Source: Atriophallophorus winterbourni
Lineage: Eukaryota > Platyhelminthes > Trematoda > Plagiorchiida > Microphallidae
Direction: 5' to 3'
Assembly (NCBI GenBank): GCA_013407085.1
Contig: JACCGJ010001783.1
Coordinates: forward strand, 55,409-119,408
DNA length: 64,000 nucleotides
The translations under genes and the position numbers were made by a program. Below, piece after piece: positions 1,793 to 62,040 of the stretch (the stretch's first letter is position 1; each line of letters starts with the position of its first letter). The notes beneath the pieces are model-generated. The model ran no database searches. It was not told the origin of the DNA and saw nothing but the letters and a program-made list of their open reading frames with translations.

Positions 1793-4207
1793 ATGACCAT
1801 GCCTATTTTTTCCAACAATAATAAATTCAATATTAATTGTCATACAGTTGTGCATAAATCTACCTTCACTTCTTTTCATTTCGCTCCTTCTTGTGTTAGT
1901 ATCCTACATATTAATGCCATATCAATCACACCTATGGTCCAAATGCCGAAATCTTTTCTCATTTCGAACTCAGTAGAAATTATTCTTATAAATGAAACCC
2001 AGACACGAGAGGGCCAGCCTGACTCAAAACACAATTACCAGATATTCCGGAATAATCGAAATTCGAAACGTGTTGGCGCTACTCTTTTTCATGTTCATTC
2101 TAGGCTTACAGCTGATAGCTTTACCTAACCTAGTCTATCATAACTAGAGGACTCAACATGGATTATATTACCATCTTTAGATCTCTTAATAGGCTTCATT
2201 TATTATCCACTGTCTTCAACTATGTCTAAAATGGATTATTTAATTCACGCGTTTATTGAAGCATCTCTACACCATGCGCAATTTAAACTCATTGCTGGGG
2301 ACTTCAACATGCCAATGTTAAACTGGCACGGTCCTGCACACCACAGTTGCTCTACACCTTCTATCAGAACTCTAGGATTAATAGGACATAATCAATTTAT
2401 TGACAAACCTACTAGAAATGACAATATCCTAGATCTTGTCTTCATCTGAACCTGTTCCCAGCTAACCTGGAGGTAATTCCATCGATCCTTAACGCTGATC
2501 ATTCCAAATATTATGCGTTACTGCTTCTGCCAACTCTTCTAAGCCATCTAATGTCAAGCAAAACTACAACCACATTAACTGCAAGGTTATTTCAGAAATC
2601 ATTAGAACAAAAAACTAGAGCTGTTTTTTCCTCTCTAATAATTTCACTACTGACTCTTCATTAGGCATACAAAATTAACGAAAACCCAGAAAATAGAAAA
2701 AAATAATGGAGTTATATTTTGTTGCTATGGAAACGCAAGACATTTTGCTCATTTTCGCTATCAAGAAGTCACATATATGCTTCAGACAACACATTTAGAG
2801 CCGATGAAATCAAAGCCCATATAAGTCAGGATAAGATGGAATAACTAGGTAATCTTTACAAGTTACGATCAGCCAACTCACCTAGCAACATAGATTTTAT
2901 TGTCGCAAATTGTATTTCTCCCGTAGCTAAAACAATCATCAGTTTCTCTGATGCTATCTTTGAAGAATTCCTTTTATAATTTAACTCAACCTACAACAAG
3001 TCAAACTACGTTTATACAACCAGTCAACTTCCCTCCCCTGGTAAACTGATTAATCTAAGTATAAACCTAGGTGACAAGAACATTCTGTCAGCAAGCAACA
3101 GTGAGTCTTATACCTGACATACGACGCATAACTCTAGCCATATGCAAAATAAGTGGCAAAGACATTCAACTTCTCTTGCTGAACTTATTTAACGCATCTG
3201 TCGACTTTGGTACCTTTCCGGTGGAATGAAACACTCAAATTTTATACCCAGATACACATCTGGCTCAAAACACTTAATTACGATCTACCGGCGGATAAAC
3301 CATACAGCTTGCTTATGAAGAAAATTTTGAAAATTGTAAACAAAGCTATACTAGAATACCTTGCACCAAGAATCTTTTCTAAGGCACAACACGGCTTCCT
3401 TATTAAAAGATCCTGCATCATTGCCAGTTAGAATACTTAGACTGTATCACAAGATCAATTGAAAATGGTTTAGCAGTCATAGTTGTCTTCCTTGATATAA
3501 CTAACTGTACCGCATAAACTGTTACTATCAAAGTTGCCGATTCCAAGTGGCGTGATACAAGGCAGTGTTTTGGGTCCATCACTTTTTCTCATATACATAA
3601 ACTATGTACATACAGTCATCTGTCATAGTAAACTATTCTTGTTTGCAGACGACATGAAAGTAGTCATTTCTTTCCCATCTTCAGAAGCACAAACTTACAT
3701 TGCCTGGCTGAACAAAGATTTAGCTGCATTATCCAACAGGGGTAAACTAAATGGTCTCTCATTCTCGGTAAATAAATCTAATTTCATGACTTTAAGAATT
3801 ACAATAACTGAAAGATCAATACATCTCAGTAGTAAGCCCATTAAAATGATTAACTACACACGTTCAGATATTCTGCATTGCTTACATTCAGCGAGCATAT
3901 ACATCACGTGATCTCGAAGTCGAAACAGACTGTAATAATTATACTTAAGTTCTTTACTCCCCCAAACTGTAAGTTAGAACTTTATAAACTATTCACTATA
4001 CATATCTTTGATTACTGTAATATAATAGTAATATATAACAGCGAAAACAAAACCGATAGTATCGTTTTCGAAAAAGTACAACGTAATTTTACCACATCAA
4101 TAATTGTATATAGCTCGAATAAATCATATAGAGAAAGGTGTAAGCTACTCATGCTAGAACAATTATGGTTTCGTAGAATTAGACACAACCTGATACTGTT
4201 ATTTTAG
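1793..4207 (+). mobile_element. CR1-like LINE with endonuclease and reverse transcriptase, decayed
   Basis: The most complete LINE in the window. An apurinic-type endonuclease domain comes first: a remnant of its N-terminal block at 1880-2120, then GDFNMP and DNILDLVF at 2222-2449. Reverse transcriptase follows: QHGF/RSC block at 3370-3420, motif B SGVIQGSVLGPSLF at 3545-3590, motif C FADDMKV at 3640-3660 with both Asp residues kept, and the thumb with VQRNFT and RRIRHNLI at 4070-4200. This order is typical of CR1/Jockey-like elements such as schistosome SR1 and Pido. At least four frame changes or stops disable it. About 4208-4620 is probably its 3' untranslated remnant. Confidence 0.85.
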
Positions 4208-4619: not shown

Positions 4620-4768
4620 GTGGCGCTCACAACCCCATCCTTTACACACCACTACCGGTTTCTGAATGTTTGCCGACATCAGTTGGAGACTGTCGGATCA
4701 GGTTCAGTGAGCCTTGAAACAGTGGAAAAGCGGTAAACGAAGTTAAACTTGTATGCCATTGTTATATA
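4620..4768 (-). repeat. Hammerhead repeat family C, degenerate copy
   Basis: Read on the minus strand it matches the family C repeat seen at 50389-50651 and 29500-29700. The GAAA-CCGG part of the ribozyme core is kept (about 4655-4662), but the CUGAUGA box has changed to CUGAUGU and stem II no longer pairs, so this ribozyme is very likely dead. Confidence 0.6.
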
Positions 4769-5083
4769 GGGTTCTTACAAAGAACCACGATGTTAAAACA
4801 CAAAACCACGATGTGATTATTGGTGAAGCACTCAATGCGCTTAAGGATGACCAAAGTAATGTGTTGCTCACTTTGTTTACCACTTATCCACTGTTCCGAG
4901 GCTCACTGAACCTAATATTACTGCATCTACCTGATCACGGCAAACAGCCAGAATCCATTAGTGGGTGGTAAGAGTGCAGGGGATGTGAGCAACACAACAC
5001 TTGGCCAGCATAACGCCTTACTGCTTGACGCAGAATCGGTTTGTGATTCTGTACTTGAACTCGTGGTTCCTCTGTAAAGAACC
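4769..5083. repeat. Imperfect fold-back repeat, about 315 bp
   Basis: The two ends are inverted copies of each other. GGTTCTTACAAAGAACCACG at the left matches the reverse complement of the right end (about 5062-5083), and the inner TGTGTTGCTCAC block (about 4861-4872) is repeated inverted at about 4983-4996. Each arm is about 100 nt and imperfect. No open frame is inside. It may be a MITE-like element or two inverted copies of a short repeat. Confidence 0.5.
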
Positions 5084-6156: not shown

Positions 6157-7805
6157 ATGTCGACCGACTCTATCGGAGTAGGTGATATAATATACCCATT
6201 AACAAGAACCCCACCATCTTTGATGCGTACTCAACTTGTCTGCTTTACTACTCATCATCCAGCACTTTTATCAAGATCAAACATCAAATGTTTGTACACC
6301 AACGCACAATGCTTAATAAATAAGTTACCTGAGCTAATCGAAATTCGTCAAAAATATTCACCATTCCTGATAGCCGTAACGGAAACCTGGTTCAACCAGC
6401 AATTAGCTGAGGAGGAAATTTCCATTTCAAACATGTTTCATATGGACCGTGTAGGAGCTGTTTCTATTTACCATGATCAACACCTCAACAGAGAATATAC
6501 AATTAATGATTCGATACTGGAACATACACTAACTATAGATCAGTTACGTTGTTGCCAGTGGTCTCTAAAGTTCTCGAACGATTTGTATCTGATGACCTTA
6601 TCAAACATTTGGAACAAAATAATATTTCCAGCGCATAACACGGATTAATGATAAGACACTCTTGCCTCGCCAATCTTCTCATAACTCTTGGTAACTGGAC
6701 TGAAGCCGTGGATAATGGATATCCTATCCATGCTTGTTACTTGGATATAATTAAAGATCTTGACCGTGTTAACAACAGTATACTGCTACAGAACTTGGAT
6801 CAGCTCGGAGTGGTTGGCAGTTTATTGGCCTGGATACAGGATTATTTGACTGGTAGAGTCATTAGGGTTCGAGTTAATGGGGCACTATCCAGTCCAATAG
6901 AAGTAACAAGTGGCGTACCTCAAGGCACAGTCTTGGGTCCAATACTTTTACTGTTATACGACATACCCGAAATCGTACGAAGCCAACTAATTTTATTTGC
7001 GGATGACATCAAAGTTTGGACTAACGTGCGCACCATAGAATATTGTCAAATTCTACAAAATATATCTCTATGCACTTCATACGTGGTCCTTACGAAACTG
7101 CCTGCCATTCAACATCCAAAAATGTAAAATGTAAAACGTCGATAAATCATTCGAATTCACATACTCTTTGGGATCTCAGCAACTTTCATGGGTTACGGAA
7201 GAGAAAGACTTGTTTGTGTGGATTAGCAGAAAGTTGAAGCCTTCACACAGTGTTCTTGGGTTTATAAAAAGTACTGCCCAAGCTTAGCACTGCTCAGAAG
7301 GATCTTCGGTATTTTCCCAAAGAAGGTACTTCCACAGATAATTAATACCTATATCCAGCCGTTGTTTACATGTTTTTCACAGGACATGACCTTGCTGCAA
7401 CGCGTATACCACAATGACCGACCTTTACAACAGGTCATACGAGGAGAGGATTTCAACTATGAACCTGTTTGCTTTTTCGTACCTTCGTCTCAGGGGTGAT
7501 TTGATCCTGCTCTTCAATATTCTGCGCATAGTGGATCACCCACTTGAACACCTGCAAGAAGTACGTGGTAACAGAATCTCTGCCCCGACCTATCATCTGT
7601 GCTTCAAGCCTGAATATGTTCAAGGCTGAACTTGACAAGTATATGATGACCAAATCCAACCTCGTTCCAGAATACCCAAGGTGACTCTCCATTCGTGTTG
7701 TTTCTATGCATTCGCTGTATTTTTAACCTGTGGTTACTATAATGTATTTGCTTTTTGGACCTTTAAACCTTTAAATTATTTTGAATTACTTTGAATTATA
7801 TTGTT
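6157..7805 (+). mobile_element. CR1-like LINE with internal deletion and 3' tail
   Basis: The endonuclease start is readable at 6280-6450 (NAQCLINKLPELIEI, then TETWF). The frame then passes abruptly into reverse transcriptase at about 6450-6550, so the rest of the endonuclease and the linker are deleted. Reverse transcriptase has HACYLDI (motif A) near 6730, SGVPQGTVLGP (motif B) near 6910 and LFADDIKVWTN (motif C) near 6990-7020. The thumb continues in shifted frames with RLRGDLILLFNIL at 7480-7530. It ends with TTTGAATTAC-type repeats at about 7765-7795. Copies near 18160, 45400 and 51000 belong to the same family. Confidence 0.85.
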
Positions 7806-15383: not shown

Positions 15384-15480
15384 GCGCATGCGGATCCTGA
15401 TTTTACTGTCCCTACCTGATGAGTGCAAACAGTACGAAACCGATCGTGGGGTGTGACGGAAAAGCATTAAAATGAATATT
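15384..15480 (+). repeat. Hammerhead repeat family C, 5'-truncated copy
   Basis: A 97-bp copy in sense orientation ending in the family's 3' terminus (GAATATT). It contains a nearly intact hammerhead ribozyme, listed separately. It lies in the first recognised intron of the ERICH3-like gene. Confidence 0.75.
15410..15451 (+). ncRNA. Hammerhead ribozyme (family C)
   Basis: Stem I is CCCUAC (15410-15415) with GUGGGG (15446-15451), including one G-U pair. The conserved CUGAUGA is at 15416-15422. Stem II is GUGC (15423-15426) with GUAC (15432-15435), loop AAACA. GAAA is at 15436-15439. Stem III is only CCGA (15440-15443), changed from the palindromic CCGG of other copies. The expected cleavage is after UC at 15445. 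All core bases are present; the stem III change may weaken pairing of two copies. Confidence 0.8.
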
Positions 15481-17960: not shown

Positions 17961-19481
17961 TGTGTATAACATTCACGGAAGTTAATGGAAAAGGTTTACG
18001 AACCCATACATCAGAAACCAGTCAGCGATGAATGCGAACCGTTCATGCGGCACTGCCTTGCGGGTGAAGTCAATCTGCTAAAGGTTCGAGATGGGACCAC
18101 GTAGACGAAAGCTCCCTTACGTCGGTGTAGACAATCGGGTAGTATCCGAGTCACATTGTTGCCACTTGTCTCTAAGCTTCTCGAACGATTTGTAGCTGAT
18201 GAACTTATCAAACATTTGGAACAAAATAATCTTCTTTCCATCGCACAGCACAGATTTAGGACAAGACACTCCTACCTCGCCAATCTTCTCATAACTGTTG
18301 GTAACTGGACTCGAGCCGTGGATAATGGATATCCTATCCATGCTTGTTACTTGGATATATCTAAATATAAACAACATATTCTCCAAACCTCGCTTAAACA
18401 ACAGTGCCCATCAGATCTAATCGGTGTTAGCTTACATTGTATCCGAAGGGAAGACCTGACACGGAGATCTGTTCGGTTGAGCGACCACAAAAGATGTTGC
18501 TGGCTCCTTCTAAACTGGTCGGGCAAACGAAGCTACTCAAATGTGCCAGTCTGGAGAACAGTTCATAAACGCTTAATTGCGATCGGTCAAACGGTGGACG
18601 ATAGCCCAGGTCGTTAAGGTTACGGTGGACAGGGTTCAAATCCCACACGAAGCGGAGGATATGCACTGCTGATGAGCACTCGAGTCCAGTGCTTCCATTA
18701 TGGACCGTCGTGATCAACTTTGGGAATAGTTCGATGGGCTTGGCACGGATGAGTAGTCACAAATATAACACTTATTCTCCAAAGATCGCTTAAACAACAT
18801 GCCCGTCAGATCGAATCGGTGTTAGCTTACACACTGTATCGATGGGAAGACCTGAACACGGAGATCTGTTTCGTTGGGCGACCACAATAGGTAGTGGTTG
18901 TGCTTTGTGGCTTCCTTCTGAACTGGTTGGGCAAACAAGCTACTCAATGTGCCAGTCTGGAGAACAGTTTCATAAACGCTTTAATTGCTGATCGGTCCAT
19001 GGGGGGTGGCGGTTGGTGCGATTTGCCCGGGGGTCGTTAAGGTTCGGTGTGGCAGTGTTCAAATCCCACACGAACGGAGATATGCAACTGCTGAGGGTTG
19101 GAGCTCAAATAGAGCGAAACTCGAGTCCAGTGGCTTCCATTATTGACCTCGCGATTACGGTGTTGGGTTGGTGTGTGAGTTCGTGGCGGTTGGCAACGGA
19201 ATATGAGTCACAAATATGTAAAAAGCTTTACCGTGTTAACCACAGCTACTGCAACAAAATTGGAGCGCTCGGGGTGTGTGGGGCAGAATTTTGGCCAGGA
19301 TACAGAGAACTTGACTGGTATCACCAGGGTTACAAGGAATGGGGCACTATCCAGTCCATAGGAATACCAAGTGGCGTACCTACTCACAGGCGCAAGCTTG
19401 CGGCAAAGGTCTTTTCCTGGTTTGGTCTGTTCGCGACAACGATATGCCAGAATCTGTACACTGCAAAATCATTTTCTTTGC
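17961..19481 (+). mobile_element. CR1-like LINE interrupted by a repeat dimer and ending at the gap
   Basis: Reverse transcriptase of the 6157 family reads VSKLLERFVADELIKHLEQ at 18167-18223 and HACYLDISK (motif A) at about 18339-18365. It is then broken by the dimer at 18363-19222 and resumes at about 19223 with motif B remnants (SGVP near 19370). Sequence matching the region just before motif C runs up to the first N at 19482. Extra single bases make the last 400 bp look like poor consensus. Confidence 0.75.
18363..19222 (+). repeat. SM-alpha-like SINE dimer inserted in a LINE
   Basis: Two tandem units start at about 18363 and 18761 (AAATATA then ATTCTCCAAA) and end near 19216. Each has a tRNA-like box B (GGTTCAAATCC near 18636; GTTCAAATCC near 19058) and remnants of the hammerhead seen complete at 22913-22957. 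In the first unit, stem II and most of GAAA are deleted; in the second, extra bases disrupt CUGAUGA. Short similar sequences flank the pair (ATATCTAAA at 18356-18364, ATATGTAAA at 19213-19221), consistent with a target-site duplication. Confidence 0.7.
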
Positions 19482-20481
19482 NNNNNNNNNNNNNNNNNNN
19501 NNNNNNNNNNNNNNNNNNNNNNNNNNNNNNNNNNNNNNNNNNNNNNNNNNNNNNNNNNNNNNNNNNNNNNNNNNNNNNNNNNNNNNNNNNNNNNNNNNNN
19601 NNNNNNNNNNNNNNNNNNNNNNNNNNNNNNNNNNNNNNNNNNNNNNNNNNNNNNNNNNNNNNNNNNNNNNNNNNNNNNNNNNNNNNNNNNNNNNNNNNNN
19701 NNNNNNNNNNNNNNNNNNNNNNNNNNNNNNNNNNNNNNNNNNNNNNNNNNNNNNNNNNNNNNNNNNNNNNNNNNNNNNNNNNNNNNNNNNNNNNNNNNNN
19801 NNNNNNNNNNNNNNNNNNNNNNNNNNNNNNNNNNNNNNNNNNNNNNNNNNNNNNNNNNNNNNNNNNNNNNNNNNNNNNNNNNNNNNNNNNNNNNNNNNNN
19901 NNNNNNNNNNNNNNNNNNNNNNNNNNNNNNNNNNNNNNNNNNNNNNNNNNNNNNNNNNNNNNNNNNNNNNNNNNNNNNNNNNNNNNNNNNNNNNNNNNNN
20001 NNNNNNNNNNNNNNNNNNNNNNNNNNNNNNNNNNNNNNNNNNNNNNNNNNNNNNNNNNNNNNNNNNNNNNNNNNNNNNNNNNNNNNNNNNNNNNNNNNNN
20101 NNNNNNNNNNNNNNNNNNNNNNNNNNNNNNNNNNNNNNNNNNNNNNNNNNNNNNNNNNNNNNNNNNNNNNNNNNNNNNNNNNNNNNNNNNNNNNNNNNNN
20201 NNNNNNNNNNNNNNNNNNNNNNNNNNNNNNNNNNNNNNNNNNNNNNNNNNNNNNNNNNNNNNNNNNNNNNNNNNNNNNNNNNNNNNNNNNNNNNNNNNNN
20301 NNNNNNNNNNNNNNNNNNNNNNNNNNNNNNNNNNNNNNNNNNNNNNNNNNNNNNNNNNNNNNNNNNNNNNNNNNNNNNNNNNNNNNNNNNNNNNNNNNNN
20401 NNNNNNNNNNNNNNNNNNNNNNNNNNNNNNNNNNNNNNNNNNNNNNNNNNNNNNNNNNNNNNNNNNNNNNNNNNNNNNNNN
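19482..20481. other. Assembly gap, 1000 N
   Basis: Exactly 1000 N, so probably a nominal rather than measured gap. It starts in the middle of a LINE, just before the expected motif C. No annotation is possible inside it. Confidence 0.99.
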
Positions 20482-22532: not shown

Positions 22533-22828
22533 GTAAGCATTATTGTTGCGTCTATCGTTTCTACTCCGCTTCCAATGTGATTTAAGCTGTCTGAATAAAG
22601 TGGCGCATTACTCAAATTTGATAAGCATGTTCAACAATGAAGATTTTGGAGAACAACGCGGATAGAATATACGTATAGAAATTAAACAAATCGTACATTC
22701 GTGTTTGCATCCATGTGGTTTAAAGGAAGAGTGAAAGTAATTTCAAATTTAACATGAAGTGGGAAATTTATGATTAACAATGAGGGTTTTTAATAAACTG
22801 GGGCCAGCGCAGTGTTATTCAACGTGAA

Positions 22829-22842
22829 ACATTGTAAAGTTT
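22829..22842. repeat. Target-site duplication, left
   Basis: ACATTGTAAAGTTT, repeated exactly at 23139-23152 on the other side of the SM-alpha-like element. Confidence 0.8.
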
Positions 22843-23138
22843 TTGTGTCTACTCAACCGTACCAAGTCTTTCGAAATATTCACAAAGCTTATCACAACGG
22901 TCCACATTGGAAGCACTGGACTCGAGTTTCGCTCTTATTAGAGCTCATCAGCAGTGCATATCCTGTCTCGGGTCTGACTGGAACCCAGGACCTTCACCAT
23001 TGTAGTCTCATACCTTACGGCCTGAGCTACCGACCCCCGTTTGACCGAGCGCGATTAAGTCTTCACGAATGTTTCTCCAGATTGGCACATTTGAGTAGAC
23101 ACAAAAACACAATGAACAAACTCTCCAAACACCCTTCA
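22843..23138 (-). mobile_element. SM-alpha-like SINE with pol III boxes and hammerhead
   Basis: An approximately 296-bp element on the minus strand, flanked by exact 14-bp direct repeats. Reading 5' to 3' on the minus strand: an inverted 5' piece, a tRNA-like box A (TAGCTCAGGCCG, 23029-23018), a box B (GGTTCCAGTC, 22985-22976), a complete hammerhead (22957-22913), and a 3' end reading GAGTAGACACAAAA. The first and last 16 bases are perfect inverted copies (22841-22856 and 23091-23106). Schistosome SM-alpha repeats likewise combine pol III signals with a hammerhead. It sits in an intron of the ERICH3-like gene, antisense to it. Confidence 0.85.
22913..22957 (-). ncRNA. Hammerhead ribozyme, complete core
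   Basis: On the minus strand: stem I GCACUG (22957-22952) pairs perfectly with CAGUGC (22918-22913). CUGAUGA is at 22951-22945. Stem II GCUCU (22944-22940) pairs with AGAGC (22935-22931), loop AAUA. GAAA is at 22930-22927. Stem III is the palindrome CUCGAG (22926-22921), followed by UC (22920-22919), so cleavage is expected between 22919 and 22918. All invariant bases are present. A loopless palindromic stem III suggests it works as a dimer, as known for newt and other animal hammerheads. Confidence 0.93.
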
Positions 23139-23152
23139 ACATTGTAAAGTTT
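23139..23152. repeat. Target-site duplication, right
   Basis: Exact copy of 22829-22842. Confidence 0.8.
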
Positions 23153-29499: not shown

Positions 29500-29700
29500 T
29501 CTTGATACAAAAATGCTCATTTCCATGCATTTCCATCACACACACACCACAACCGGTTTCGTGTTGTCTTTGATGATGATGATGTGTTGTTTGTACTCAT
29601 CAGGTAGTGACCGTAGGATCAGGATCCGCATGCGCTTGAAACAGTGGAAGAATATTAAACAAGTTGCGCTTGTATGCCATTGTTGGATAAGGTTAAATTG
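29500..29700 (-). repeat. Hammerhead repeat family C with expanded ribozyme loop
   Basis: Minus-strand copy of family C. On the minus strand it reads from the family's TATCCAACAATGGCATAC region, through CAAGCGCATGCGGATCC, to the ribozyme and the 3' end (GGAAATGCATG). It lies in the intron before the DUF4590 exons. Confidence 0.75.
29540..29610 (-). ncRNA. Hammerhead ribozyme with loop II expansion
   Basis: CUGAUGA at 29603-29597 and GAAA-CCGG at 29560-29553 are intact on the minus strand, followed by UU (29552-29551), an allowed cleavage site. Between the two core boxes lie 36 nt instead of 13: a partly duplicated stem II and four ATC triplets. Stem II can form only weakly, so activity is doubtful. 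Confidence 0.6.
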
Positions 29701-32306: not shown

Positions 32307-33294
32307 GTGAGTGAGCATTGTAAACTTCATTTTCTGAGCCACTCAAGCATTGTTTTTCTTTCTCGTTTGAACGAGGTTGAATCGTCATAGTCTGTACGAA
32401 CACCAATGTATCTCACGGAAATTTAATTATATTGATTGGATTGAAATTCTTTAAGATTTCCGGGGCTGAATGCTCTAAGTTATTTGACTGACTTTTTATA
32501 TACCTTATAGTTAATGAATTACAAACGGTTCAACAGGAACCACAGCATGAAAGTGTGTACTAAGAAGTACGTTCGCTGATCAATTTAAAACAAATAATGA
32601 CCCCATGATTATGTATATCCGGCTAAAAGTAGACGTATATTCAATTCGACCGCGAAGGTGGTTAGTGTGGTTTTTGCATGGTGGGATATTTCTCGATTGG
32701 TTTCAGGAAGATCTTTGCCTAATACCGGAGCGATGGAATGAATTCAGTCTGCTGCTTCTAGATATCGTTCATTCATTCACTAAAACCTGCATTTTCTGAC
32801 AGCAGCTAAGGAAACGGGTTGCCAGTGATCATACACTTAAGACCTCCGCTTGAACCGATACATATCTTAAGCAGTGTTCAATTCATCTATGAGCACGTTA
32901 TGCATTAAGCTAACGGTAAAATATCTACTGCAGCTATGAACGGTTATCAAAGAATACTTCTGCGTTTGGTCTCTACGTTTACAGTCTACTAATATTTCCG
33001 ATTTTAAGGATGCCATATGCTTAGGCAAGCCAAATTCCATTCGTTTTAATTCAGAGTCTACAAATGTGTAGTATATGACGTTCCATAAGTAGGTCGAAGT
33101 ACACCATCGGTTTCGTGGTTGCCACTTATCGTGGAACTCAGCTTAGTCCCTATGTAAAGCTAAATGTCATGTTGCAAATGAAGATTTATCCATCACTTTT
33201 CAAATCAAAATCGTAGTAACTATTCTCTTCCCCATTGCATGATATTGTGAACGTGCAGAAAATATTTTTAAGTTGGTCGTTTTCTTCACGATAG

Positions 33295-34862
33295 ATGATT
33301 CGTGTGTAGAGGGCGCGGAGTGTAAAACGTCTCAGCAATTCGAACCCGATCCTGATTTATTGACCGATTCCTTAGCGTTGGATTCGAACGTGAGTCGACG
33401 TTTAGCGAAATCCACTCGTTGGGAATGTTTCCGCACCATGTTCCACCCGACGGAAGAAGCTGAAACTGAGCAAGCCACGAACGAAGACACACAATTGAAC
33501 TACGGGGTCGAAGAGGTGCAAAATGCCGATGAAGTCGAACCCTTGTCCGAAACACATGAATCAGTCAGTCACTTGTTACCGGCTACTGAATCAGATGATC
33601 TGACCACATCTCCCACTTCCAATCATGCAGTTCCAGACTACGAGGCTGATGAAATAGTTTACGATGAAGAATTTGAGGAAGAAGATGCTGATTACCAAGA
33701 TGACGATGGTATTGCTGACGATGCTTCGAATGGCGGCGAGCTGTCCGCAAAATCTGTTCACAACTATGAGCAATCAGAAGATCCTTTTAATAAACCAAGG
33801 GGAGACTTTATCACTACGAATTCTTCGCAGTGTGCTGTAGTCGGTAAAGCCGATAGCCTGTTCTTGGGCTGCATGGTATCTGTGACCCCTTCTAGATTTT
33901 CGGTGGACCATTTTCTATGTAGCAAAGAAATTGGCGAAGACATTAAAAATAAGACAACAGATTCGCCATTTGCTGATATGCCTCACACAACTGAACTGCA
34001 AGAAACAATATGCGACGGTCATACCCTCGGTCGAGCTCAGCACAGTCTTTTGCGAGATTACAGTTCAATTCAATTGAACGAAAGCGGAAACGTTGGAAAT
34101 GCAGTACAACAGACCTGTATTGTAGAAGATCGCTCACACGAAGCTGAACAGCGAGTGGCCAGCAAAATTGAGAACGTTGCTCGTTCTTCCCAACAGTTCG
34201 GAACTGTTGTTCAAGGCGACTCGTTGAATTCATTTGAATATGAACATGTTCATGTATCAGGTGACAGACGTGCAACGTACACTGTCACTTTGGATTCTTC
34301 AGCGGCTCAACCCAAATCAATTGACCGATTGACCCGACAGCTGGATGTTGACACGCGACCAATCGACTCGGGAATACACTTTGGCGATGAGCTGGTTGCC
34401 TGCGCTTCGTTGAACACCGCAGAACTTGATCCGAATCATATCAATATACTTCCGACGAGGAAGTCTTCAATTCACTTACCAGAAAACGTTTCGCCTGATG
34501 TGTATCAGTTACCAGATCGTGATGTGCCGCAGATCACACAAACACACATCCCTCTTGCACAGAGTCCCATCCATCAATCTGTGTCAGATGAGACTGGCCA
34601 TGAAACTGTGTTTACCAAACCAGGTATAGCCGAAACCAAATACATGGAACATGATGTTGCTCAAATGAATGCATCGAAACCAAAAGTCATCAAAGATTTT
34701 ATGCACACACCATCATTATCGACCGAAGTATTAGGTTCCGAATATGAACCAGCATCAGAAGTCTATGAGTCCGCGTCTGATGTCACTCTTCGTTCACTAT
34801 TGAATAATGTTAGAGAGGCCGAATTAGACCGGAACGTTTTAAACGAAGCAAAAAATACGTAA
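33295..34862 (+). CDS. ERICH3: ERICH3-like exon 10: acidic C-terminal tail
   Basis: Acceptor TTCACGATAG ends at 33294; the exon completes a GAT codon (phase 1 in) and stays open for 522 codons to TAA at 34860-34862. Near 33650-33710 it has a Glu/Asp-rich run (YDEEFEEEDADYQDDDG), comparable to the EYEEDFE segment after DUF4590 in vertebrate ERICH3. The rest is Ser/Thr/Glu-rich, with no domain, and is probably disordered. A donor after the stop (34882) and downstream exons raise the question whether the reading frame once continued. Confidence 0.85.
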
Positions 34863-50388: not shown

Positions 50389-50653
50389 AACAAAATATTC
50401 ATTTACATGCTTTTCCGTCTCAACACGACCGGTTTCGTGCTGTTTGCACTCATCAGGTAGGGACAGTAAGATCAGGATCCGCATGCGCTTGAAACAGTGG
50501 AGGAATGGTAAACAAGGAGCGCTTGTATGCCACTGTTGGATAAGACTGGTACGACCAACCTGTTCAATACATGTGTACAAACACATGTTTAATGGAGTTA
50601 AACCCATAACCATGAAACAAAATATTCAGCTGCATGCTTTTCCGTCTCAACTC
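50389..50653 (-). repeat. Hammerhead repeat family C: one full unit plus partial unit
   Basis: The 36-bp end of the repeat occurs twice, at 50389-50424 and 50616-50651 (33 of 36 identical), giving a unit of 227 bp. On the minus strand the upstream partial unit starts at or 2-3 nt after the predicted ribozyme cleavage point and runs into a full unit that ends with the ribozyme and a second 3' end. This is the arrangement expected if a ribozyme-trimmed multimeric RNA was copied into DNA. Confidence 0.75.
50421..50462 (-). ncRNA. Hammerhead ribozyme (family C), core intact
   Basis: On the minus strand: CUGAUGA at 50456-50450; stem II GUGC (50449-50446) with GCAC (50440-50437), loop AAACA; GAAA at 50436-50433; palindromic stem III CCGG (50432-50429) within ACCGGU; UC at 50428-50427; cleavage expected before 50426. 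Stem I is weak here: CCCUAC (50462-50457) faces GUGUUG (50426-50421), about three pairs. Confidence 0.85.
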
Positions 50654-52418: not shown

Positions 52419-54570
52419 TTAGAATTTAAGTTTCGACGCTGGAGGCGATGACAAAAGTTTTGGGGAGGGCATTCCAAAGGAAACAACACATGCAGAATAA
52501 AAATATCGGCGACAGCTTATACCGGAATGGAAAATTTGTAGTGTTTCTGAGTGGCTGAGTGTATGTTGTGACTCATGGTTTGCGAATAATTGTTTTAAAG
52601 GATGATATGGGGTAGTTAATATTTTGTATGTTAGTATCATATCACTCTGAATGCCCATTTTAAGGAGAGTTTGGAGTCTCAGTTTATGCAACCGTTCCTC
52701 GTACGTTAATTTCCGGAAACCACTTACGAGTTTGGTTGAACGATGGTATATTTTATCAATCAAAAGTATATCCTTGGTCAACCACGGAGTCCAAGCTTGC
52801 GATGCATGCTCCATGGTTGGAATTAAGTAAGCCTTCATGATGGTTGGCAATGTTCAAGGTGATACTATTCAGAAAATCCGTCACAGCATACCTAGAAGCT
52901 TGGAAGCACGTTTGTAGATGACCTCATAATGCAGGCTGTAATTTAGGCTGTCGCATGACCAGACTCCAAGATTCTTTAACGATTGGGTCCGGCTCAAAAT
53001 CTTTGGCCCAAAGTGATATTGGTACTGGAATGGCTTATCAATTTGGAACACCTTGCATTTTTAGAAATTGAATGGCAGCTTACTCCGTACCGACCATTTA
53101 TCGAGAGCAGCTTTAGCAGCTGTACACAGTCCGCAATTGATTTATCCGCGTCCAAAGTTTAATATCATCAGTAAAGAGAGTCACTTTGCATGAGAGCGGC
53201 TCTGGTAGGTCGCTGATGTAAACCAAGAAACGTACTGGCCCGAAGACGTAACCTTGCAGTAGATCATTAGAGGGATCAATAACCCGTGATTGAACCCTGT
53301 AGAGTCAATCGATTGCCTTGCGCCCAGTGAGGCAACCTTCAAGCCATACGCGTAGCTGTCCGCGGTCACCCATCTGCTTCAGCTTTTGTATTAGTCGAAA
53401 GTGATCAACTCGGCCAAAAGCTTTAGACATATCCAGATTGTAAGCGTGGATGCGAGCTCCTTCGTCAACCACTTGGGTCCAGTCGTTTAACACCCTCAAC
53501 AAGTTTGTCAAGCATGAGCGAGATTTACGAAAACCATGTTGCGCTACAGATATTTGTTGATTCCAAGTGATAACATATTTTTCAGTCACTATACGCTCTA
53601 GAACTTTGGATATCACATGATTAAGGTGGCAGGACGGTAGTTTGCAGGATCTCACCCTACCACCCTTGTAGATAGGCGAAATTAATCCTGTCTTCTACTC
53701 TGTTGGCACCACTCCTTCGGTTAGACTATGTTTAAACAATTCACTTGATGGTTTAAACAGCTCCTGTTCACAGGATTTCAGTAAGTCGGTGTGATTCCGT
53801 CCGCTCCAGTGGATTTCCTGGGGTACATTCGACACAAATGTTGCTGTATAATTGCTAAATTGATCTCGATCTCAGTCAGCTGTTGCATCACAGTTATTGG
53901 CGGTAATTCTACATTCGATCTAATCGTTAACAGACTAAATACTTTGGCGTAAAATTAAGCGAGAGCATCAGCTGTATCCTTTGTTGAGACTGTTAACCCA
54001 TCCTCAGTAAGCACAGGAAACACCCCTGGTTTCACGCTCGATCGAGCATTGACAATCCGATATATAGCAATTTAGGATTTCCTTCTATTTTCAAAGATAG
54101 AATGCGATGATAATTTTGCTCGTCTTCCTTGATTAAAGCGTCCATTTTGTTTCGAATTCCGCACAATTGTTGCCAGGAAGCATCAGCGATGGTATTTCTG
54201 TGTTGTACCCAAGCAGAGTTCCTTTGCCCGATCCATTTTTCGTGCGAATACGAATCTTTAAGCAAAAGTAGCTTGCCCGTCGTTCATCAACAATCGCGAA
54301 CTTTAATATATGTCTGACTGAATTCTTTCTGTGAGTGCTGTGCAATGTTTTGGTGTTGTAATAAACGTAAACTCGCGTGGCCGATTCATCTGAATAGTTT
54401 TGCGGACTCACATACTCGTCTAGCGCTGCATACATATTCGAAGCCTAACACAAGATAATCACTCCGACCGAGGGGAGGAATGTAGTGAAAACCCTCAACT
54501 GCCGTAGTCTCGGAAGTAAGGTTTAAATCCAAAAAGGAAGGCAACTCCATGGTGTCCAAGCTTGTACTCT
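52419..54570 (-). mobile_element. LINE B: endonuclease end to reverse transcriptase end, decayed
   Basis: Minus-strand order: end of the endonuclease (YIPPLGRSDYLVL, near 54450-54490), the linker with RNSAWVQHRNT and IKEDEQNYHR (54032-54265), reverse transcriptase start (SKVLERIV, QHGFRKSRSCLTNLL), motif A YNLDMSKAFGRVDH (53405-53450), broken palm frames, and thumb/end (HASQAWTPWL, then YEERLHKLRLQTL) at 52419-52850. Stops and frameshifts inactivate it. Motif C is not readable. Confidence 0.8.
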
Positions 54571-56887: not shown

Positions 56888-57051
56888 TTATGAATACACG
56901 ATCAGGTCCCAAACATATTCCAATCGATTGCTATTCAAGGTAATTCAAGGTTTTTAATGGTCTAAGAAGCAGAAAAATTAGCAACAACCATATGATGGTA
57001 AAATTGAAATGTAAGCGTATAAAACAAGATAAGGAATTAGATTAAACAGTA

Positions 57052-57089
57052 ATATTCACTTGCATGCTTTTCCGTCACACACACCCCAC
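57052..57089 (-). repeat. Family C fragment starting at the ribozyme cleavage site
   Basis: Read on the minus strand it starts GTGGGGTG, exactly the bases expected just after hammerhead cleavage, and runs to the 3' end (GAATATT). It is flanked by GATTAAACAGTA at 57040-57051 and 57099-57110, consistent with a target-site duplication; a 9-nt extra GATTAAACA lies beside it. Confidence 0.65.
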
Positions 57090-57254
57090 GATTAAACAGA
57101 TTAAACAGTATTTAAGTGTTCGGGAAACGAATTATTCAATAAAACTTCGTCTAGTTCGTTTTAAAGTCATGCAAGCTAGTGGAGTGAGCAACGGTAGAAG
57201 GTAAACTGTTCCAAGTAAACAGACACGGGCAGAATAAAAATACCTGCCGTCTAT

Positions 57255-59669: not shown

Positions 59670-61580
59670 CTAGATATTTGACCATCGCTTTCGCCACCGG
59701 GAAAAGTACTTTTTCTTCCGATGTCTCCCATCACGTTTTCTTGATGTTCGTTCTTTGTGGAGTTGGGAGTGATTGTTCACGAACATTGTTGGTTCGTTGA
59801 AATGCAGTGGGAATCCATGATACGACGCTGAGCATGGGTAATATTCCGAATGAGGTGGCATGGTCTGTTGGAAATTGTGCTGTCCGTAATAGAAGCGCAT
59901 CATGTCATCCAGCATGGGTGGATGATATGAAGTAGCCTGCCACCAGGGAACAAGAGGCATACTGTAATACGATGGCTGAGCCTGTGCAAATTGATCTGAA
60001 GGAACTGGAAGCTGAGATTCTCGTTTAGAGTCCACAATCTCGTGATCTAGTCGCTGTTGCGAGTCCTCATACATCGGCATCAAATCTTCGTTGAAGCAAA
60101 GCTTCCTGAATTCTTTGTCAAGAGTACGCAATGAAGCATCCTCTATCAGATCAGAAGTTTCCGCCAAAGCCAATACACCCGCCGTTATCAAAGAAGCCGA
60201 ATCTGCCGTTGAAATCAGACTAGGGTTATCCCGCGGAGCAAGATTCTTGTGAGAAGCATGTTGTTTTAGTATTTTGGAACTCGGTGATTTACGCCGCATC
60301 GGAATTTTACTCGATGGTCTCTTCAAACCAGAGGAACTAGCAATTTTAGATTTAGCAGTAGATTTACTCAAGTGTGAAGATGGGATTGAGATATCTGGAC
60401 GACTTGGCTTGGTGGTGTGTTTTTCGTGCCTATTAGCATGTAGCAGGACTTCTTTATGAACAGGAAAACTTCGCTTTTGAGTGTGAAGCGATTGGCTCCG
60501 CCGAGAATTGCGTCCAGTAGAAATGGTATCAAACGTAGTGACTGCTGTAGTTTTACTTTGCATTCCAACTTTCACGACCCTGGAGTCTTTGCAATTTTGT
60601 ACTGGCTGTTGAGCCACGGGTTTAGGAATTCTGGAGGGTCTTGGCAAACTATCATGTAAATTCATGTGTTCAATATTTTTCTTCGATTTTTCGTCCCCCG
60701 TCTCTCCATGGCGTGACCGAGACACAACACAACTGTCGCGAGTACAGTCCGTGGATGAACGGGTTCTGGAACTTGAAGGCCAAGATTCCTTTTCCGGCGG
60801 AACCGTCGATGTGCATGATGTTATTAAATCTGACGTTGAGGCATCGTTATCGAATTGTGATGTGTCGGATTCCACCTCACACGAACAGTCTGAAGTGTAT
60901 TCAGTCCGGGTTACAACTCTAATTGAATCCGAGATAACTGTGGTCGAAATGACACCAACCATTGGTGTTTGATGCTGCAAATCGCAAGTTGGCATATGTG
61001 TAGGGTCCTGATAAGTGGCAGGGTTGCTCGACTGGTCTGAAGAGTGAACTAATTCCGAAATCTCACTGGAATAGGTCGAGTTCTTGCTAGAGCCAACAGA
61101 TTCCTTTGAATGTTTTAATTGGATGGAGGATGTATCTGCAATGCTTTTTCTAATCGTTATTTCCTTCCCGGATTCTGAACCCGCAGGATTAACCACCCTC
61201 AGAAAATGCTTGAATGTATCCAGGAAGCCTGTCGAATTGGTTGTGGATGAACTGGCCTTTCGAGACAAAGAAGCTACGCGAAATAATGTAGCCAATCTGG
61301 TGTTCATAACTTGATCGCCTGCTTGTTGAACTTTAAATGGAACGGCAGGATAGTGAGAATGATGCACAGGACCGTGACCACTTGTTCTTGAACTGTTCGC
61401 GTTTGAACATAAGCACGAGAACCACTTGGATTTGTCTTGTTTAAATGCAGCTTGCCTCCGGTACTCCGCTGGATGATGATTTACATCCGAAACACTGTCA
61501 CCCGTCACACTGACGGACGTGAGAGAATCCATCAAAAAGGATAGGCGTTTCGATAGACCTAAATTACCATTCCGTGACAC
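59670..61580 (-). CDS. SxIP-motif Ser-rich protein, large 3' exon
   Basis: A 636-codon minus-strand frame. Much of residues 100-440 is Ser/Thr-rich and basic, with SRIP (316-319, in PSRIPKP) and SKIP (424-427, in PSSKIPMRR). SxIP in a basic Ser/Pro-rich setting is the standard EB1-binding signature of microtubule plus-end proteins, so a role at microtubule ends is inferred. A conserved-looking helix (residues 478-515, LIEDASLRTLDKEFRKLCFN) and a Tyr/Pro-rich part (535-590) precede a very basic C terminus. The first codon is GTG; the nearest ATG is codon 17. An in-frame TGA lies just upstream and an acceptor-like ATGTAG ends at 61582, so this is probably a 3' exon of a larger gene; other exons were not found. 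A polyadenylation signal follows. Confidence 0.75.
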   Translation of the reverse strand: MSRNGNLGLSKRLSFLMDSLTSVSVTGDSVSDVNHHPAEYRRQAAFKQDKSKWFSCLCSNANSSRTSGHGPVHHSHYPAVPFKVQQAGDQVMNTRLATLFRVASLSRKASSSTTNSTGFLDTFKHFLRVVNPAGSESGKEITIRKSIADTSSIQLKHSKESVGSSKNSTYSSEISELVHSSDQSSNPATYQDPTHMPTCDLQHQTPMVGVISTTVISDSIRVVTRTEYTSDCSCEVESDTSQFDNDASTSDLITSCTSTVPPEKESWPSSSRTRSSTDCTRDSCVVSRSRHGETGDEKSKKNIEHMNLHDSLPRPSRIPKPVAQQPVQNCKDSRVVKVGMQSKTTAVTTFDTISTGRNSRRSQSLHTQKRSFPVHKEVLLHANRHEKHTTKPSRPDISIPSSHLSKSTAKSKIASSSGLKRPSSKIPMRRKSPSSKILKQHASHKNLAPRDNPSLISTADSASLITAGVLALAETSDLIEDASLRTLDKEFRKLCFNEDLMPMYEDSQQRLDHEIVDSKRESQLPVPSDQFAQAQPSYYSMPLVPWWQATSYHPPMLDDMMRFYYGQHNFQQTMPPHSEYYPCSASYHGFPLHFNEPTMFVNNHSQLHKERTSRKRDGRHRKKKYFSRWRKRWSNI

Positions 61581-61584
61581 ACTA

Positions 61585-62040
61585 CATGCTAATCAAATGG
61601 TTAATTTATTGATTTATTTTTATCACGTGATATGAAGTTTACGGTTAGACTTACAAGTGAGAGTATAAAAGTCGTACAAGGAATCTGTCTAAATAATTAT
61701 AATACACAAAGAAGGTGCGATAAGCAATGGAGGATGAATGATCAAAGATAACTCATAAAACTTCGGAAATTTAACAACGCAATTACCACCTGCATTTCTG
61801 TAATTCTACAGTTATGCATGATTCGGTGAACGGGCATTGGTGAATCTCAAAAGTTATACGTCTTGAGAATTCAGAAATAGCTACGAGTGAATTCATTTTT
61901 TTCAGATTTCTAGATTTCTCGCTAAATACAACGAAACTATGTGTATGTTGTCCTCCTTTGGTCAATATCCACCATGGATGTACATCACAGGTGTATTGCG
62001 ATTTCATGCTCCGCACGCTTTGTCGAGGTGCAAAATCCAT
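61585..62040. other. Unassigned, upstream of the SxIP exon
   Basis: No further exon of the minus-strand gene could be recognised. The minus-strand open frame at 61783-62040 shows no domain. Confidence 0.35.

What the first reader, a model, noticed from the sequence alone, without database searches (positions are those of the whole stretch)
22913..22957. A complete hammerhead ribozyme with a palindromic, loopless stem III
On the minus strand every invariant hammerhead base is present (CUGAUGA, GAAA, UH before cleavage), with perfect 6-bp stem I and 5-bp stem II. Stem III is CUCGAG with no loop, so a single copy would fold poorly but two copies could pair into a longer stem. It sits inside a SINE-like element, as in schistosome SM-alpha. 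The particular family here may be undescribed.
Basis: partly seen in the sequence, partly recalled or inferred. Interest (0 to 1): 0.9.

Follow-up and report, generated by a model that had tools for sequence, protein, structure and literature searches.

The report
Self-cutting RNA in fluke jumping gene
A short self-cutting RNA sits in one of hundreds of copies of a small jumping gene in a parasitic fluke, and the way the copies were inserted hints at which copying machinery moves them, a question that had been open.

Summary
The motif is real. The loopless palindromic stem III is not odd: the Rfam type I consensus has it too.

The host is a digenean trematode (COX1 79% identical to Prosthogonimus cuneatus; species not identified). 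The ribozyme belongs to a dispersed tRNA-like SINE of the SM-alpha / non-LTR retrozyme kind: 207 matches in 537 Mb to a 33-nt ribozyme pattern with four free loop bases, control 0, and tandem units of about 423 bp.

New is how copies insert. Most 3' ends fall at two A/C-rich sites about 30 nt apart, inside the unit. Inverted pairs are head-to-head (30 against 0 tail-to-tail) and usually carry one tail of each kind (17 of 20 classifiable, p=1.3e-4). This resembles the two internal start sites and two-strand priming shown in vitro for a Penelope-like element (PMC11167929). The window copy is such a pair, with a 15-bp target duplication. Penelope-like machinery probably moves the element, but no such element sharing its tail was found. 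Insertion ends show almost no footprint of ribozyme cleavage.

The parts
22913..22957 (-). Type I hammerhead ribozyme; predicted cleavage between 22919 and 22918
   Evidence: Rfam RF00163 35.6 bits, above gathering score; sequence; 207 genome matches to the 33-nt pattern with four free bases, reversed control 0
22909..22963 (-). Ribozyme with outer stem I (GGA/UCC) and its internal loop (UAU / U)
   Evidence: HH9 model aligns 22909-22962 at 39.2 bits, below its cut-off of 52; fold; outer pairs kept in 95.6% of cells of 31 chosen copies
22975..23029 (-). tRNA-like head with A-box-like TAGCTCAGGCCG (23029-23018) and B-box-like GGTTCCAGTCA (22985-22975); most of the 31 aligned copies have G where this copy has the second C
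   Evidence: sequence, alignment of copies; box consensus recalled; ARAGORN finds no tRNA
22839..23098 (-). Main arm of the insertion, unit positions u76-335; its 3' end is the short tail (ACACAAAAAC)
   Evidence: mapping on a real 423-nt unit of L008, 95% identity
23092..23141 (+). Second, inverted short arm, unit u319-365, ending in the long tail; overlaps the main arm by 7 nt (TGAGTAG)
   Evidence: mapping, 94% identity; inverted repeat 22839-22865 / 23082-23108
22828..22842 (+). Target site duplication, copy 1 (AACATTGTAAAGTTT); last 4 bases overlap the arm
   Evidence: (15 nt)
23138..23152 (+). Target site duplication, copy 2; first 4 bases overlap the arm
18373..18851 (+). Older copy of the same element, about 1.2 tandem units, ribozyme stem II lost
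   Evidence: 74-79% identity
18912..19149 (+). Second older copy; sub-threshold hammerhead at 19085-19133 with an insertion in the core

Best explanation
A non-autonomous retroelement of a digenean fluke: a tRNA-like SINE that carries a type I hammerhead and also exists as in-register tandem units of about 423 bp (a non-LTR retrozyme of the SM-alpha kind). Its RNA is predicted to fold into a long rod, with the tRNA-like part and the ribozyme at the tip and the A/C-rich tail at the base. A Penelope-like (PLE) enzyme is inferred to bind the RNA, cut both target strands about 12-15 nt apart, and prime reverse transcription from either or both 3' ends at two internal tail sites about 30 nt apart. 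When both ends prime, the two cDNAs join head to head; the window copy arose so. The ribozyme probably serves to trim tandem transcripts into monomers; cleavage is apparently not needed for insertion. Shown: ribozyme match, family, tandem units, tails, pairs, target duplications. Inferred: PLE as the mover, rod and dimer folding, ribozyme activity and role.
For: Rfam hit; 207 pattern matches; 16 of 20 loci scanned have a match over the cut-off; tandem units of 419-424 nt. After removing duplicated loci, 83 insertion groups: 46 in-register tandem junctions, 30 head-to-head, 4 other same-strand, 0 tail-to-tail. Single 3' ends: 31 short tail (u325-345), 14 long tail (u350-373), 4 other. Of 27 pairs with both outer ends in view, 17 carry one tail of each kind, 3 two alike, 7 not classifiable; 17 of 20 against 43% expected from singles, p=1.3e-4 (0.0013 if half were expected). 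The 30 junctions are all different, so independent events. Target duplications of 12 nt or more in 15 of 84 clusters against 2 of 3540 mismatched-flank pairs; 14 after removing duplicates, of which 11 are head-to-head pairs. PMC11167929 (parts 1-2 of 4 read): a PLE starts reverse transcription internally at two adjacent sites in an AC-rich loop 111-118 nt into the ORF, the ribozyme cut being 26 nt into it (so 85-92 nt after the cut); it cuts and extends both strands; an optional 30-40 bp tail lies between the sites. Here the peaks of the ends lie 77-81 and 104-114 nt after the cut. GIY-YIG fragments over the Pfam cut-off exist in this genome, some beside frames that look like PLE reverse transcriptase (motifs recalled). 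Rod and ribozyme helices: 87.6% of cells paired against 33-39% when slid. In 34 copies not picked for their ribozyme, ribozyme sites diverge 5.2% against 9.7% nearby (p=0.014).
Against: No PLE sharing the tail was found: 12 GIY-YIG loci of about 3 kb, several of them duplicates, of 17 matches listed, show neither a hammerhead nor similarity to the unit. Most single insertions lack clear target duplications. The two arms of a pair, and adjacent tandem units, are rarely each other's closest relative (0 of 15 and 3 of 22), so a shared or circular template is not shown. Only 19 of 34 copies not picked for their ribozyme have an intact core. Of 16 copies truncated upstream (about 9 independent) none starts at the ribozyme cut, and one of 62 arms of pairs does (L072, u256), so cleavage in vivo leaves next to no footprint here. 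ARAGORN sees no tRNA.
Confidence: 0.62

Rival explanations
1. An ordinary hammerhead SINE moved by a LINE (for example CR1 or RTE), with inverted pairs made by classical twin priming.
For: Non-PLE-like reverse transcriptase fragments in the window (Pfam RVT_1 in 3 of 8 frames scanned); target duplications of 12-15 nt and head-to-head inversions also fit target-primed reverse transcription.
Against: Both arms of most pairs end at fixed tail sites, not at random inner sites; the ends are internal to a longer unit (u370-423 occurs between tandem units; one of 49 single insertions ended at u423). [quoted passage not shown]
Confidence: 0.25
2. A retrozyme copied through a ribozyme-made circular RNA, whatever the enzyme, giving tandem cDNA by rolling around the circle. 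This can be true together with PLE priming.
For: In-register tandem units are common (46 junctions); known metazoan retrozymes make circRNAs (PMC7229834); the circular fold is rod-like; adjacent units are somewhat closer than a typical pair (0.929 against 0.886).
Against: Adjacent units are each other's best match in only 3 of 22 cases; 12 of 70 single-strand runs start at u2-u4, a fixed 5' end not expected from a circle; almost no ends at the cleavage site.
Confidence: 0.3
3. A DNA transposon or fold-back element (MITE) with terminal inverted repeats that happens to contain a hammerhead.
For: The window copy has 27-nt inverted ends at 89%.
Against: The inverted ends come largely from a second short arm; other loci have different breakpoints (30 distinct junctions) or one arm only. 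The natural ends are imperfectly complementary as part of the predicted RNA rod.
Confidence: 0.03
4. A dead relic: a preserved hammerhead in decayed repeats with no activity.
For: 15 of 34 copies not picked for their ribozyme lack the full core; the best monomer fold is not the hammerhead; the window copy's B-box differs from most copies.
Against: 207 pattern matches; ribozyme sites diverge half as much as neighbours.
Confidence: 0.1

Closest known systems
SM-alpha / Sj-alpha hammerhead SINEs of Schistosoma
   Same: tRNA-related SINE-like element of a trematode with a type I hammerhead, dispersed and highly repetitive (PMC2770079 and PMC8490949, passages read)
   Different: Unit here is about 423 bp (W36.2, similar to SM-alpha, is 335 bp in PMC8490949); sequence not compared because no SM-alpha sequence was held; the two-tail and head-to-head pattern was not mentioned in the passages I read
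Metazoan non-LTR retrozymes (Cervera and de la Pena 2020, PMC7229834)
   Same: Tandem repeats of 150-450 bp with a type I hammerhead, GC below 50%, target duplications, strongly self-paired RNA
   Different: circRNA not tested here; this element has tRNA-like promoter boxes; that paper only names PLEs as a strong candidate mover
Penelope-like elements (Poseidon of Anolis, PMC11167929)
   Same: Ribozyme, then two internal reverse transcription start sites in an A/C-rich stretch; tandem units; both strands primed; optional 30-40 bp tail
   Different: PLEs encode RT and GIY-YIG nuclease; this element is too short to and is a non-autonomous user at most

Membership tests
Type I hammerhead ribozyme (Rfam RF00163) | Score above curated cut-off with all core residues | tested here: met
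   35.6 bits against 34; core read directly
Type I hammerhead ribozyme (Rfam RF00163) | Self-cleavage after C17 | not testable with these tools
   needs in vitro transcription
Hammerhead SINE of the SM-alpha kind | tRNA-like head with A and B boxes upstream of the hammerhead | tested here: inconclusive
   A- and B-box-like sequences (consensus recalled); ARAGORN finds no tRNA
Hammerhead SINE of the SM-alpha kind | Sequence homology to SM-alpha | not tested
   no SM-alpha sequence held; Ferbeyre 1998 not held
Hammerhead SINE of the SM-alpha kind | High copy number, dispersed, with target duplications | tested here: met
   207 pattern matches; 15 of 84 clusters with duplications of 12 nt or more, control 2 of 3540
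Metazoan non-LTR retrozyme | Tandem repeats of 150-450 bp carrying a type I hammerhead | tested here: met
   units of 419-424 nt, 46 in-register junctions after removing duplicates
Metazoan non-LTR retrozyme | Low GC (text of PMC7229834: below 50%; its figure legend: below 45%) | tested here: inconclusive
   about 46% in the arrays: meets the first figure, not the second
Metazoan non-LTR retrozyme | Abundant circular RNA | not testable with these tools
   no RNA data
Penelope-like element | ORF with RT and GIY-YIG nuclease | tested here: not met
   a 423-bp unit is too short; the only frame of 110 aa or more over the window copy is 116 aa stop to stop; so it is not itself a PLE
PLE-mobilised (works like a PLE) | Two internal 3' ends about 30-40 nt apart after the ribozyme | tested here: met
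   peaks u332-336 and u359-369; of 49 single ends 45 fall in the two tail classes and one at u423
PLE-mobilised (works like a PLE) | Both target strands primed | tested here: met
   30 head-to-head, 0 tail-to-tail; indirect, from insertion structure
PLE-mobilised (works like a PLE) | A PLE in the same genome sharing the tail | tested here: inconclusive
   no similarity or ribozyme in 12 GIY-YIG loci of about 3 kb; only those were looked at

The most novel reading that the evidence does not exclude
Hammerhead SINEs (and perhaps animal retrozymes in general) are moved by Penelope-like enzymes: the stretch from ribozyme to tail imitates the enzyme's own initiation site. The two 3' ends of a cut target prime at the two tail sites, one each, leaving a head-to-head insertion with one tail of each kind. 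Ribozyme cleavage is not part of insertion. I saw no such genome-scale trace of two-strand priming reported in the listings.
Probability: 0.5. Interest if true: 0.75.

Novelty: new member of a known kind. Interest (0 to 1): 0.55.

Why it matters
Hammerhead repeats in animals have been reported since 1987 (PMC7229834), yet which enzyme moves them and what the ribozyme is for are open; the two 2020 papers read in part here (PMC7229834, PMC7761336) only propose Penelope-like elements. The two-tail, one-of-each head-to-head signature can be checked in any sequenced animal with such repeats, and the two start sites can be tested with a purified enzyme and one short RNA.

Tried and rejected
TIR/MITE reading: the inverted ends of the window copy dissolve into two arms of a two-ended insertion. 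tRNA gene: none by ARAGORN, which ran with the bacterial setting. Ribozyme footprint: copies found by the 3' half only; 92 places, 40 fetched, 16 truncated upstream, 0 at the cleavage site; the 16 include near-identical loci and are about 9 independent ends. Against this, one arm of a pair (L072) starts exactly at u256, the first base after the cut. Circular template by similarity of adjacent units: undecided. Hammerhead inside PLE loci: none in 12 loci. Species by literature: not settled. RNAalifold consensus was weak, so a structure from the window copy was counted instead, which favours that structure. Junction microhomology is not above chance overall, although the window copy has 7 nt.

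Sampling and rows dropped: 100 loci were mapped: 30 from the similarity search, 10 from the Rfam search and 60 regions from the first 100 of the 207 pattern places, in list order with some skipped. Three of them (L075, L089, L105) gave no cluster of 120 nt or more. 18 of 101 clusters were merged as duplicates by flank similarity. The tail test used 20 of 27 scorable pairs. Control flanks used 60 of 84 clusters. The structure count used 31 of 68 listed copies. Most loci were chosen by their ribozyme, so 5' ends beyond it are under-sampled.

Full report
OBSERVATION. The minus strand of 22913-22957 is a complete type I hammerhead. Rfam release 15 places it above the cut-off of Hammerhead_1 (35.6 against 34 bits, E 3.3e-5 over 64 kb). 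Read as 2 bp capped by UCGA it has the shape that PMC7229834 (abstract, passages and discussion read) calls similar to invertebrate hammerheads; the axolotl ribozyme so described was weak as a monomer (22% in an hour) and better as a dimer. Two copies cofold as the dimeric form with 8-bp helix III at -36.7 kcal/mol; a single copy's best fold, -13.6 kcal/mol, is not the hammerhead. Such programs ignore loop-loop contacts, so whether the monomer cleaves is open.

HOST. The window is G000:C1569:55409-119408 of a 537-Mb assembly. Its mitochondrial COX1, read with the flatworm code, is 79% identical to Prosthogonimus cuneatus and 70% or less to the other 119 proteins listed. It is a digenean; the species was not identified.

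FAMILY. A search with 141 nt gave 44 places as a lower bound (1794 candidates, 40 scored). A 33-nt ribozyme pattern with four free loop bases gave 207 places and the reversed control 0. Of 20 of the first 30 loci scanned with Rfam, 16 have a match over the cut-off. Older subfamilies carry the same ribozyme. Upstream lie A-box- and B-box-like sequences. Some loci are tandem arrays with a period of 419-424 bp, within the 150-450 bp range of animal retrozymes (PMC7229834). SM-alpha of Schistosoma is the nearest named kin (PMC2770079 and PMC8490949, passages); no sequence was held to compare.

INSERTION ANATOMY. I mapped 100 loci on a real unit of L008, numbered u1-423, ribozyme cut after u255. 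97 of them held 101 clusters, 84 with both flanks. After merging duplicated loci 83 groups remained. Junctions: 46 tandem in register, 30 head-to-head, 4 other same-strand, 0 tail-to-tail. Single 3' ends: 31 at the short tail, 14 at the long, 4 elsewhere (one of these at u423). Of 27 head-to-head pairs with both outer ends in view, 17 have one of each tail, 2 short-short, 1 long-long, 7 not classifiable. Given the single frequencies 43% unlike pairs are expected; 17 of 20 has p=1.3e-4 (0.0013 against one half). All 30 junctions have different breakpoints, which speaks against a spreading inverted master. Target duplications of 12 nt or more: 15 of 84, control 2 of 3540, one of the two a 23-nt match that probably reflects duplicated loci. 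After merging duplicates 14, of which 11 are head-to-head pairs. Of these 14 sequences 13 begin with A or CA and 13 end with T, so both primers would end in T; overlap with the A-rich tails may add to this.

THE WINDOW COPY. Main arm u76-335 (22839-23098, minus), second arm u319-365 (23092-23141, plus), 7-nt overlap, 15-bp duplication at 22828-22842 and 23138-23152. It thus has one short and one long tail. The 3' ends of the two cDNAs would be complementary over those 7 nt, which explains the join; across all pairs such microhomology is not above chance.

MECHANISM. PMC11167929 (abstract and parts 1-2 of 4 of the text) reports for a Penelope-like protein: reverse transcription from two adjacent internal sites, mostly in an AC-rich loop; both DNA strands cut and extended; the optional 30-40 bp tail of genomic copies matching the stretch between the sites; ribozyme mutants without effect on insertion; and no RNA reads ending at the ribozyme cut. 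The distance from cut to main start is 85-92 nt by its numbers. Here the peaks of the ends lie 77-81 and 104-114 nt after the cut, the tail between them is about 30 nt, sequence beyond it is rarely inserted except between tandem units, and both ends prime. As there, the ribozyme cut leaves next to no trace: 0 of 16 upstream-truncated copies (about 9 independent) start at it, and 1 of 62 arms of pairs does (L072). PMC7229834 and PMC7761336 (passages) argue for PLEs from shared ribozymes, tandem copies and co-occurrence. GIY-YIG matches over the Pfam cut-off and nearby frames that look like PLE reverse transcriptase (by eye, motifs recalled) are present in this genome. I could not find one that shares the tail, so the link rests on insertion structure.

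STRUCTURE. The 423-nt unit folds into a rod as circle or line. On 31 chosen copies the structure of the window copy forms 87.6% of cells, against 33-39% when slid. Cells changed on both sides exceed all 500 shuffles (29 against 15.9), as does the covariation score (0.100 against 0.092); but the number of pairs so changed (9 against 8.6) and of further pair types (63 against 65.7) do not, and most changes separate two subfamilies. Support for the rod is therefore moderate.

SELECTION. In 34 copies not chosen for their ribozyme, ribozyme sites diverge 5.2% from the majority, neighbours 9.7% (p=0.014); 19 of 34 keep the full core. Constraint on source copies is likely; activity is untested.

NOVELTY. 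Searches (listings) of the held library showed no report of this element, and searches none of tail pairing in hammerhead SINEs; key papers of 1998, 2014 and 2017 are not held. The element is a new member of a known kind. The insertion signature is the part worth following.

Noticed in passing
window 15410-15451 (+) and 50419-50462 (-): A second, apparently unrelated hammerhead-bearing repeat with a very short stem III (26.5 and 28.8 bits, below cut-off); partial copies near 29584-29691, 4638-4956 and 57051-57092; 40 places in the genome as a lower bound.
   Followed up: partly
window 19482-20481: Run of exactly 1000 N, probably an assembly gap or a withheld stretch, next to two older copies of the element.
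   Followed up: no
window 3501-3911, 6639-7127, 53305-53694: Reverse transcriptase fragments (Pfam RVT_1), probably of LINEs.
   Followed up: no
window 33243-34862 (+) and 59670-61592 (-): Two long stop-to-stop frames (539 and 640 aa) without any Pfam match.
   Followed up: no
G000 contigs C4859, C4746, C11485, C8922 and others (L045-L049): COX1-like matches besides that on C6618, several with TAA or TAG stops: possible nuclear copies of mitochondrial DNA.
   Followed up: no
L053, L054, L058, L061, L062: Penelope-like fragments (GIY-YIG by Pfam; RT by eye in some) without a detectable hammerhead within about 1.5 kb.
   Followed up: partly
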